Origin: Alistipes sp.
Lineage (GTDB): Bacteria > Bacteroidota > Bacteroidia > Bacteroidales > Rikenellaceae
NCBI GenBank assembly: GCA_017403125.1
Contig: JAFQOR010000028.1
Span: 1-57,560 of the forward strand
Reading direction: 5' to 3'
DNA: 57,560 nt
Shown here: positions 10,117-33,219 of the stretch, piece after piece
Position numbering within the stretch: the first letter of the stretch is position 1
Layout: each line of letters opens with the position of its first letter
Notes under the pieces: generated by a model
What the model was told of the DNA's origin: nothing
The model's input: the letters and a program-made list of their open reading frames with translations, nothing else
The model's database searches: none
Program-made: the position numbers and the translations under genes

Positions 10117-10155
10117 AGCGCAAGAAAGATTATGGTAATTAGCGAGGTTAGAGAA

Positions 10156-10244
10156 GTTAGGGAAGTCGGAGAGTTTAGGGAGGCTAAGGAGATAGTAATG
10201 CATAGACTCTCCCTAAACTCCCTAAACTCATCAAGTTCCCTAAC
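10156..10244. repeat. purine/pyrimidine long hairpin, copy 2
   Basis: The 5' arm is purine-rich and the 3' arm pyrimidine-rich. Pairings include gagtttagggag (10171-10182) with ctccctaaactc (10209-10220) and gttagggaa (10156-10164) with ttccctaac (10236-10244). It lies directly before the stem-loop repeat beginning at 10264. Confidence 0.75.
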
Positions 10245-10263
10245 CTCCCTATCGTATAATAGT

Positions 10264-10538
10264 ACCGCAGCAGGTCGCCTTTACATCGGGCTGATAGCGG
10301 ATATAAAGGATGAAATGCAAGACTTGCGAAGTTTGCAAAAGCGCAGCATACTTGTGCGTATGTGAGCATTTTGCAAACGAGCATAACGCAGCAGTTCGCC
10401 TTTACGTCTGGTTAATAGCGGATATAAAGGATGAAATGCAAGGCTTGCGAAGTTTGCAAAAGCGCAGCATACTTGTGCGTATGTGAGCATTTTGCAAACA
10501 AGCATAACGCCGCAGGTCGCCTTTATATACGCTATTAA
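10264..10538 (+). repeat. tandem stem-loop repeat, two units plus a leading fragment
   Basis: A fragment (accgcagcaggtcgccttta) is followed by two full units with a 121-nt period (ataaagg at 10303 and 10424). Each unit has the core from ataaaggatgaaatgcaag to gagcataacgcngcagntcgcc. Inside each, gtttgcaaaa pairs with ttttgcaaac (10331-10340 with 10369-10378 in unit 1) around a catac/gtatg tip. In unit 2 the outer arms 10412-10430 and 10520-10538 pair at 18 of 19 positions, and the right arm includes the deoD stop codon. Unit 1 has a weaker outer stem with one mismatch and wobbles. A related unit lies at 26676-26796. Confidence 0.85.
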
Positions 10539-11248
10539 ATGATGTTAAATGCGATTTCCATCATATTAGTAAACGACGTCTGACGCTCCTCTGCCGTACA
10601 AGCGGTGCCATGAACGAGAGAGTCGGAGATGGTGCAGATGCAAAGTGCACTCTTGCCGGCACGTGCTGCGTTCATATAGAGGGCGGTAGCCTCCATCTCA
10701 ACAGCCATGACACCCATCTTCTGCCACTGTTTCCAGCCATCGGGGTCATCGCCATAGAATACGTCGCTGGCAAGAATGTTACCCACCTTATAGCTTATGC
10801 CCAACTCCTCGGCCTTCTGGGCGGCACTGCGTAGCAACTCAAAATCGGCAATAGGAGCAAAGGTGCCGGGGAGGTTGAACTGTGCACCGTAGTTAGAGTC
10901 GGTACACGAGCCCATGCCGAACACTACATCGCCCAACTTCAACGATGGGTCGTAGGCACCTGCCGAGCCACAACGTATTATGCGCTGCACGTCGTAGAAG
11001 TTGAAGAGCTCGTAGGTGTAGATACCTATCGATGGGATGCCCATGCCATGCCCCTGAACCGAGACACGCTTACCCTTGTATGTACCCGTATATCCGAGCA
11101 TACCTCGCACGCCGTTATACTGCACGGGGTTCTCCAAGAAGTTCTCCGCCATGAACTTTGCACGCAACGGGTCGCCTGCCATTATTACCTTGTCGGCGAT
11201 TTCGCCATACTGTGCTCCGATGTGTGGAGTGGGGGTCTTTCCTGCCAT
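10535..11248 (-). CDS. deoD: purine-nucleoside phosphorylase, DeoD type
   Basis: This 237-residue protein is close to the usual length of hexameric DeoD enzymes. It has the phosphate-binding [10 protein letters not shown] (23-32) and RCGSAGA (92-98), the nucleoside-binding VEMEATALY (183-191) and the catalytic aspartate D209 in ISDSL. It cleaves purine ribo- and deoxyribonucleosides with phosphate in the cytoplasm for purine salvage. The C-terminus ends about five residues earlier than the E. coli protein, and the stop codon lies inside the outer arm of the adjacent stem-loop repeat, so the repeat may have reset the gene end. A full promoter precedes it. Confidence 0.95.
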
Positions 11249-26483: not shown

Positions 26484-26535
26484 AGGAGAATTTTGCAATA
26501 TAGCAAGCACCTACGGCAGAACATGGTAATAGAAG

Positions 26536-26630
26536 AGAGAGTTTAGGGTGGTTAAAGAAGTTAGGGAGGTTAGGAATGGTGAGGTTTTCTCACCAAATTC
26601 CCTAATCTCCCTATACTCTCTAAACTCTCT
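26536..26630. repeat. purine/pyrimidine long hairpin, copy 3
   Basis: The outer arms agagagtttag (26536-26546) and ctaaactctct (26620-26630) pair perfectly and the tip ggtgag/ctcacc (26578-26583 with 26589-26594) closes a five-base loop. The purine arm is on the 5' side. It is followed directly by a stem-loop repeat, as at 10156. Confidence 0.75.
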
Positions 26631-26641
26631 AATAGAGATGT

Positions 26642-26796
26642 GTAACGCAGCAGTTCGCCTCTGCGCGAAAGCCGACGAACGATTATAAAGGATGAAATGC
26701 AAGGCTTGCGAAGATTGCAAAAGCGCAGCATACTTGTGCGTATGTGAGCATTTTGCAAACGAGCGTAACGCAGCAGTTCGCCTTTATAATCGTTCG
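26642..26796 (+). repeat. stem-loop repeat, single unit plus leading fragment
   Basis: A fragment (aacgcagcagttcgcct, 26644-26660) precedes one full unit. The outer arms cgaacgattataaagg (26676-26691) and cctttataatcgttcg (26781-26796) pair at all 16 positions. The enclosed core (89 nt) is nearly identical to those at 10303-10530, but the arm sequence beyond tataaagg differs from that locus. The inner stem gattgcaaaa/ttttgcaaac has one mismatch. Confidence 0.85.
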
Positions 26797-26803
26797 ACAG
26801 CTG

Positions 26804-27427
26804 TTATTTGCGGCGCACAAACACCCCCGCACCATATATCTGCGAGAAGTTATCCAATATGCCCTCGGCAATAGATAGTGCCGAGCTATCGGTATCACCG
26901 GGACGGAGGCTCTTATACGCCTCAACGACATCGTTGGCATCGATAAGCACCGTAAGCGTATCGCCCGACAGACGGACAAAGCCATCACACTTGACCTGCT
27001 TACCCTCAATCTCGGCAATAATTTGCAACGAGCCATTGCTATCGTCATAGACATACTTGCCACTCAACGTCTCATCCTTCCACTTAATCTGGGCATTGCC
27101 ATTGCGCTTTATGGTCATGACAGCCGAGCCGGGCGTCACCCCCGCCTTACGCACCTCCGAGAGAGCATAGCTCTTCGCCTCCGAGATAGCGTAGTCTGCC
27201 AAAACATTGCTTCCGAAGTACTCTATATCGGCACCGTTATAGACCCAAGTACCCACTACATCGCTTGCCGCAGGGGCATTCTGCGCTATGAGCTCATAGG
27301 GCGTAGGCTCGTCGTCGCCTCCGATAAGAGATTTGAACGCCTTGCCCAAATCGAATTGTGCCGAGACATGCGTCGGCAACGCCATGCTGGCAACAAATGC
27401 CAACATAAGGATAGTTAATCTCTTCAT
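26804..27427 (-). CDS. DUF4923 family secreted protein
   Basis: This 207-residue protein has a signal peptide (about 1-23, ending THVSAQ), then a sequence resembling DUF4923 lipocalin-like proteins of Bacteroidales: VVGTWVYNGADIEYFGSNVL (about 57-76), AVMTIKRNGNAQIKWKDETL and GSLQIIAEIEGKQVKCDGFV beta-strand patterns. The function of the family is unknown; a periplasmic or outer-membrane-associated beta-barrel is plausible. The stop codon lies eight nt from the end of the adjacent stem-loop repeat. No consensus promoter is seen in the 155 nt upstream, so it may be read through from nadE. Confidence 0.72.
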   Translation of the reverse strand: MKRLTILMLAFVASMALPTHVSAQFDLGKAFKSLIGGDDEPTPYELIAQNAPAASDVVGTWVYNGADIEYFGSNVLADYAISEAKSYALSEVRKAGVTPGSAVMTIKRNGNAQIKWKDETLSGKYVYDDSNGSLQIIAEIEGKQVKCDGFVRLSGDTLTVLIDANDVVEAYKSLRPGDTDSSALSIAEGILDNFSQIYGAGVFVRRK

Positions 27428-33000: not shown

Positions 33001-33113
33001 AGAGATTAAGGAAATTATAGCGGCGAAACAAACTCCATTATATTCATTTTTTCTCACTATCCTCTCTTCCCTAATCTCTCTAAACTCTCTAATTTCCCTA
33101 ACCTCCCCACCCT
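33001..33113. repeat. purine/pyrimidine hairpin, degenerate copy 4
   Basis: The pyrimidine arm (ctaatctctctaaactctct and so on, about 33062-33113) is well kept, while only agagattaaggaaatta (33001-33017) remains of the purine arm; agagatta pairs with taatctct at 33072-33079. It is part of a 488-nt gap between the OPT and valS genes. Confidence 0.55.
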
Positions 33114-33127
33114 ACCACTACGCCTAA

Positions 33128-33175
33128 ACCGCAGTTTACTCTGCGTAAATGAGGATTTCCCGAACGAGCATAACG
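33128..33175 (+). repeat. degenerate stem-loop repeat remnant
   Basis: A small hairpin (cgcag-tttact-ctgcg) is followed by aacgagcataacg (33163-33175), which matches the 3' part of the stem-loop core at 10377 exactly. It follows the purine/pyrimidine copy, the same order as at 10156 and 26536. Confidence 0.45.
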
Positions 33176-33219
33176 ACAAAGTAGCCTTGTTAGACAAGCT
33201 CTTTTTTTGAAGGAAGTTA

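What the first reader, a model, noticed from the sequence alone, without database searches (positions are those of the whole stretch)
10264..10538. Dispersed stem-loop element with self-complementary outer arms that differ between loci
Three full units occur (two in tandem here, one at 26676-26796). The core is nearly identical, while the outer arms beyond ataaagg differ between loci yet stay paired: 18 of 19 positions for 10412-10430/10520-10538 and 16 of 16 for 26676-26691/26781-26796. An inner stem gtttgcaaaa/ttttgcaaac is also kept. A normal mobile element would carry identical ends in each copy; locus-specific paired arms suggest selection or a copying process that keeps a cruciform or RNA hairpin. 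I know of no named family, though I have not searched.
Basis: partly seen in the sequence, partly recalled or inferred. Interest (0 to 1): 0.8.

Follow-up and report, generated by a model that had tools for sequence, protein, structure and literature searches.

The report
Widespread mobile hairpin with co-varying arms
A 120-base hairpin found just after gene ends in a gut bacterium belongs to a widespread family of small mobile DNA pieces whose centre stays nearly the same while the two outer arms change together so that they still pair.

Summary
The window holds two complete units, one unit without its outer right arm, and a fourth, half-deleted copy; the own genome gives 21 BLAST matches and 26 covariance-model matches. 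In 50 of 51 nonredundant copies the outer arms pair over at least 25 nt on each side, while arms swapped between copies do not; 35 of 44 base pairs show double-sided changes. Arms are typical of subfamilies rather than strictly of loci.

The element is mobile. In other Bacteroidales it is bounded by inverted repeats and 4-bp target duplications, as in a MITE. In the window's genus no target duplication was detectable, and copies sit near stop codons in a preferred orientation. BLAST-chosen copies of two genomes do carry broken pairs, so pairing seems kept in mobile lineages more than at each locus.

A core (CAAGGC ... sCGsAG-TTTAC-loop-GTAAA-TGAGs ... AACGCAG) recurs in other Bacteroidota, Pseudomonas and Halomonas with other, again paired, arms. 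Rfam holds only a sub-threshold relative, sX9. No transposase was identified; Y1 (RAYT) is absent in 61 of 61 genomes searched. Best reading: an ERIC-like MITE family with an unusually conserved structured core.

The parts
10294..10404 (+). unit A of the tandem pair: left arm and core; right side runs into the spacer, so no outer right arm of its own
   Evidence: sequence; BLAST match to unit B, 96%
10412..10538 (+). unit B, complete hairpin; its right arm overlaps the 3' end of the phosphorylase gene on the - strand (10535-11248)
   Evidence: CM match 118.4 bits; ORF, PF01048
10412..10430 (+). outer left arm of unit B
   Evidence: 18 of 19 complementary to 10520-10538
10520..10538 (+). outer right arm of unit B
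26674..26798 (+). unit C, complete hairpin, 6 nt from the stop codon of the DUF4923 gene on the - strand (26804-27427)
   Evidence: CM match 119.3 bits; distances; PF16270
26676..26691 (+). outer left arm of unit C
   Evidence: 16 of 16 complementary to 26781-26796
26781..26796 (+). outer right arm of unit C
10266..10284 (+). partial copy of the element's right end upstream of unit A
   Evidence: sequence; same arrangement in L003-L006, L011, L012; end points by eye
26645..26662 (+). partial copy of the element's right end upstream of unit C
   Evidence: sequence; end points by eye
33126..33204 (+). left-truncated copy of another subtype (apical core and right arm)
   Evidence: CM match of the apical core, 33126-33158, 34 bits, E 6e-7; sequence, right end by eye

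Best explanation
A non-autonomous, MITE-like mobile palindrome that works much as ERIC elements are described to. Step 1 (target duplications shown outside the window's genus, inferred inside it): a trans-acting transposase recognises the inverted ends and inserts the 120-165-bp unit, duplicating 4 bp of mostly A/T-rich target. Step 2 (shown): copies lie at gene 3' ends, mostly with the right arm beside the stop codon. Step 3 (inferred from covariation and an excess of G.T over A.C mismatches): at some step of the mobile life cycle the strand antisense to the neighbouring gene must fold as a single strand, so a change in one arm is matched in the other before a lineage spreads; conserved unpaired motifs in the core suggest that a protein reads the fold. 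Step 4 (shown in two genomes): individual copies then also collect one-sided, pair-breaking changes, and some acquire inserts that spread with them.
For: Copies: 21 BLAST matches and 26 CM matches in the own genome; 40 separate loci each in G107 and G082 by my merging of the rows (69 and 49 match rows). Distribution by CM: 83 of 121 genus genomes, 75 of 295 order genomes in 57 of 184 genera, 48 of 395 phylum genomes in 8 of 171 genera, 40 of the 48 in one unnamed family. Ends: identical 4-bp flanks in 16 of 20 loci of G171 and G234 chosen for their inverted repeats and, by eye, in 5 of 5 loci of G205; other interiors share the ends (L330, L355, L375). Structure: 87.0% of cells paired against 65.0% shuffled and 33.8-48.4% slid; 35 of 44 pairs with double changes; 0 of 500 shuffles reach the covariation score; arm pairing score 15.3 own against 3.7 swapped. 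Strand: G.T 95 against A.C 33 over the structure, 43 against 5 in three inner helices (48 nonredundant copies). Context: right end faces a gene 3' end in 61 of 77 loci with both neighbours, left end in 43 of 77; an ORF of 130 or more codons ends near the right end in 131 of 176, 113 of these at -3 to +25 nt. Decay: BLAST-chosen copies show 22 one-sided breaks against 28 double changes in G107 (30 copies) and 22 against 8 in G082 (19 copies; 7 of the 8 at least in one divergent copy, L456).
Against: No transposase with matching ends was found in the loci looked at; Y1_Tnp is absent from 61 of 61 genus genomes. In the window's genus the best offset gives equal 4-mers in only 10 of 173 copies (background 2.2), so insertion there may differ or the ends have been remodelled. 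The strand excess is reversed in one helix (arm_H2, 9 against 14). A DDE transposase acting on double-stranded DNA would not need a folded strand. The loci were picked by their inverted repeats, the script preferred end pairs with equal flanks, and most G171 copies carry a variant core.
Confidence: 0.7

Rival explanations
1. A structured RNA with a local function at gene 3' ends (terminator, mRNA stabiliser or antisense RNA), kept at each locus by selection.
For: Strong folding and covariation; position beside stop codons; a C-G to A-T compensated change between orthologous copies L023 and L053; the same gene carries an element with other arms in three species (L005, L042, L043).
Against: The G.T excess points to the strand antisense to the neighbouring gene; BLAST-chosen copies in one genome carry many one-sided breaks; 38 of 121 genus genomes gave no match (strict filters, so a lower bound on presence); copies spread within genomes.
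Confidence: 0.15
2. Insertion of a shorter element into the loop of native terminator hairpins, so that the outer arms are the host's own stem.
For: Gene-end position and fixed orientation; no target duplication in the genus; several single copies differ from their subfamily in whole blocks of outer pairs.
Against: Arm length is nearly constant, mostly 26-31 nt; identical outer arms recur at many loci (28 and 21 copies of two types); target duplications outside the arms in other genera.
Confidence: 0.08
3. Arms kept alike by a mutational process (template switching inside quasi-palindromes) without selection.
For: Compensated double changes among young copies of G107.
Against: Mismatch and bulge positions recur at the same places (A.G at arm position 11/48 in 13 of 48, bulged base at 19), which such correction would erase; one-sided breaks are common.
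Confidence: 0.05

Closest known systems
ERIC and other palindromic MITEs (review PMC10969869; passages read)
   Same: short imperfect palindrome (ERIC 127 bp in the table of PMC2267715, passages), dozens of copies, stable hairpin; gene 3' ends reported for ERIC in Yersinia and for QMITE2; elements inserting into one another reported for BOX, RUP and SPRITE
   Different: homology to ERIC not tested directly; co-varying arms; a core shared between phyla; 4-bp duplications here
Rfam RF02228 sX9, Xanthomonas sRNA
   Same: matches one side of the apical hairpin plus the adjoining inner part on the strand opposite to the one I call +: 31.3 bits on L489; E below 1 in 7 of 9 loci. A survey (PMC9029176, section 2.2 and Table 3 legend passages read) lists sX9 among its top 20 most prevalent sRNA families
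   Different: below the gathering score of 44; not matched by the window nor by 8 other relatives; filed as an sRNA, not as a mobile hairpin. That the original Xanthomonas locus is such an element is my inference (paper not held)
REP/BIME/REPIN elements with RAYT
   Same: dispersed palindromes near genes; G.T pairs in stems (PMC3733652, passages)
   Different: about 120 bp instead of 20-40; no Y1 transposase in 61 genomes; no constant GTAG or CGTC tag in 6 sequences
Integron attC sites (recalled)
   Same: imperfect single-strand hairpin after a stop codon, fixed orientation, variable sequence
   Different: no constant R-box pair in the arms; dispersed, not a cassette array; integrase not searched

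Membership tests
MITE | short, non-coding, multi-copy, dispersed | tested here: met
MITE | terminal inverted repeats | tested here: met
   (other Bacteroidales); in the genus the arms themselves
MITE | target-site duplication, other Bacteroidales | tested here: met
   16 of 20 chosen loci, and 5 of 5 in G205 by eye
MITE | target-site duplication, window's genus | tested here: not met
   best offset 10 of 173, background 2.2
MITE | autonomous partner with the same ends | tested here: inconclusive
   none seen in the loci or among IR pairs of two genomes; assemblies often break in these repeats
REP/REPIN with RAYT | Y1 tyrosine transposase in the genome | tested here: not met
   0 of 61 genus genomes; positive in 5 of 14 control genomes
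REP/REPIN with RAYT | GTAG or CGTC tag | tested here: not met
   6 sequences; GTAG only in the Pseudomonas one, CGTC only in L484
Rfam sX9 | gathering score of 44 bits | tested here: not met
   best 31.3 bits
ERIC | sequence homology to ERIC | not tested
   only a Pseudomonas core query against E. coli genomes, no match
integron attC | conserved R boxes and an integron integrase | not tested
   arms show no constant box; integrase not searched

The most novel reading that the evidence does not exclude
One old single-strand hairpin module (CAAGGC ... sCGsAG-YwTAC-loop-GTAwr-TGAGs ... AACGCAG), shared by Bacteroidota and Gammaproteobacteria and partly captured in Rfam as sX9, rides in MITEs with quite different ends. 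The core rather than the ends is what is conserved, so it would be read by a widespread host or transposon factor, and the arms are free to be re-invented as long as they pair.
Probability: 0.35. Interest if true: 0.85.

Novelty: new variant of a known kind. Interest (0 to 1): 0.62.

Why it matters
Small palindromic repeats are usually described species by species by their sequence. Here the sequence of the arms is nearly free while their pairing and a few unpaired core letters are kept, from one gut genus to other phyla. That makes the family findable by structure, gives a direct test of which strand and which factor read such hairpins, and may explain why an sRNA family such as sX9 is annotated so often. 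It also shows that covariation alone does not prove a local RNA function: it can reflect selection on a mobile lineage.

Tried and rejected
RAYT/REP partner: rejected, no Y1_Tnp in 61 of 61 genus genomes. Rfam family: none at threshold; weak matches are chance. IS630 beside the P. amygdali copy as partner: rejected, it has ends of its own. Hairpin-correct young copies: first count was biased because loci had been picked by covariance-model score; redone on BLAST-chosen loci, where 30 of the listed G107 and 19 distinct G082 copies could be placed (three BLAST-chosen G107 loci, L417, L444 and L452, one G082 locus, L462, and six CM-chosen G107 loci were not placed). Search for an autonomous element by paired ends: nothing recognisable. 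Phage records: no match; viral contigs: none with the first two patterns, four with a shorter one. Literature: ten searches found no paper in the held library that I recognised as describing this element; no hit held the four Pseudomonas-type strings, and the hits looked unrelated by title.

Full report
What is there. A tandem neighbour at about 10294-10404 lacks an outer right arm, and a left-truncated copy of another subtype lies at 33126-33204. Upstream of units A and C there is a partial copy of the element's right end, an arrangement also seen in L003-L006, L011 and L012.

How many and where. A DNA search with unit B gives 21 matches in the own genome and matches in 27 of 36 congeneric genomes but 0 of 24 genomes of other families. 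A covariance model (R1) built on 49 copies (A1) finds 26 matches in the own genome and matches in 83 of 121 genus genomes (at most 29 candidates were scored per genome, so counts of 29 are lower bounds), in 75 of 295 genomes of the order (57 of 184 genera) and in 48 of 395 genomes of the phylum (8 of 171 genera; 40 of the 48 in one unnamed family).

Arms. Of 121 distinct pattern matches, 112 had 50 nt on both sides; 51 of these were nonredundant by left arm. In 50 of 51 the arms pair, 26-50 nt on the left and 25-49 on the right, mostly 26-31; the exception is L157. The mean score is 15.3 for own arms and 3.7 for swapped arms; 0.7% of swapped pairs reach the own median. On A1, with the structure I named, 87.0% of cells are standard pairs (65.0% after shuffling, 33.8-48.4% after sliding), 35 of 44 pairs change on both sides, and all 24 pairs of the outer helix do. 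The structure was derived from these sequences, which favours it over the slid versions. Helix 2 changes through G.U only.

Which strand. In 48 copies nonredundant at 80%, G.T outnumbers A.C 95 to 33 over the whole structure and 43 to 5 in three inner helices, but not in arm_H2 (9 to 14). A.C on the + strand would be G.U on the other, so the fold seems to be kept on the + strand, which is antisense to the neighbouring gene. RNA and single-stranded DNA cannot be told apart by this.

Gene context. Among 77 loci with both neighbours within 500 bp (10 more were too far), the right end faces a gene 3' end in 61 and the left end in 43. An ORF of 130 or more codons ends at -13 to +65 nt from the right end in 131 of 176, 113 of them at -3 to +25; at the left end 76 of 167, typically 55-78 nt away. 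In 29 loci of other families the right end has such an ORF end in 15 of 28 and the left in 11 of 25; within -5 to +8 nt, 9 of 28 against 0 of 25 (my count of the rows). ORFs were called by length alone.

Mobility. In G082, G107, G101 and G105 near-identical copies lie in unrelated flanks, often with a short terminator-like hairpin in front. Rows merge, by my count, into 40 loci each in G107 and G082. Six G082 copies carry the same 70-nt insert and five copies in G082 and G107 carry a second hairpin family inside the internal loop, so composites spread too. In other Bacteroidales the unit is bounded by inverted repeats (AGTGTYTGTCYATAAWGT) with equal 4-bp flanks: 4 of the 29 loci L298-L326 showed such a pair with equal flanks (most of the others do not have this end sequence), 16 of 20 loci of G171/G234 chosen by their repeats (3 unequal, 1 cut by a contig end), and 5 of 5 copies of G205 with another end sequence, by eye. 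Unrelated interiors share the same ends. In the window's genus no offset gives more than 10 of 173 equal 4-mers. No transposase was recognised, and Y1_Tnp is missing in 61 of 61 genomes.

Pairing in young copies. A first count on copies chosen by CM score showed almost only compensated changes, which is biased. On BLAST-chosen copies, G107 (30) has 22 one-sided breaks and 28 double changes, some inherited within subfamilies, and G082 (19) has 22 and 8. Single copies therefore decay. One compensated change between orthologous copies (L023/L053) speaks for some selection in place. Apical loops vary more than stems: 20 loop types in 58 copies of one type, 11 in 30 copies of G107.

Beyond the phylum. 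With a G107 copy as query, plasmid records of Halomonas (E 1e-6), Pseudomonas veronii (2e-4) and Haliscomenobacter (8e-3) match the apical core; further Pseudomonas plasmids match the Halomonas and P. amygdali copies, and four viral contigs hold the core. In 24 of 29 chosen loci in which a core was recognised, 17 have both CAAGGC-like and AACGC/AACGA motifs at the same distances (-19/-20 and +13 to +15); the misses include P. veronii, P. amygdali, P. tremae and Haliscomenobacter. Arms there differ and pair. Three Pseudomonas/Halomonas loci look flanked by TA (by eye, not tested).

Known names. No Rfam family reaches threshold. sX9 (RF02228) matches 7 of 9 phylum loci at E below 1 and L489 at 31.3 bits, always on the strand opposite to the element's + strand, but none of 8 other relatives. 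A survey lists sX9 among the most prevalent sRNA annotations (PMC9029176, section read). I infer, without having seen the Xanthomonas work, that sX9 annotations partly mark this family. The closest well-described kind is ERIC (PMC10969869, passages).

Verdict. A MITE-like mobile hairpin family with a structured core conserved far beyond the window's genus and with co-varying arms: a new variant of a known kind. What reads the fold, and what moves it, is open.

Noticed in passing
window 10153-10247 and 26530-26632: A second, larger palindromic repeat made of AGGGA/TCCCT words (GTTAGGGAGGTTAGG ... CCTAACCTCCCTAA) lies beside the element at both loci, and similar words lie beside L005-L008, L010 and L012 and near 33090.
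   Followed up: partly
L170, L173, L175, L206, L207; inserts in L425, L431-L434: A second hairpin family (TAATTTnTTGTGATAAG ... GTACGTTTnAGTACT ... CTTCTGACAAnAAATT), beginning at the stop codon, with arms that again vary and pair; related sequences sit inside copies of the first family.
   Followed up: partly
L330 (163 bp), L355 (236 bp), L375 (432 bp): Other short elements with the same inverted ends and AATT duplications but unrelated interiors.
   Followed up: no
L278-L282, L258-L265 and similar: A short terminator-like hairpin precedes many copies and shares its WAACAAG or TAAAAAG word with both arms; the word changes together in all three places between types.
   Followed up: partly
L033 and L034: At the same locus of two species the tandem remnants and the complete unit have exchanged arm types, as if units of an array had been swapped.
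   Followed up: no
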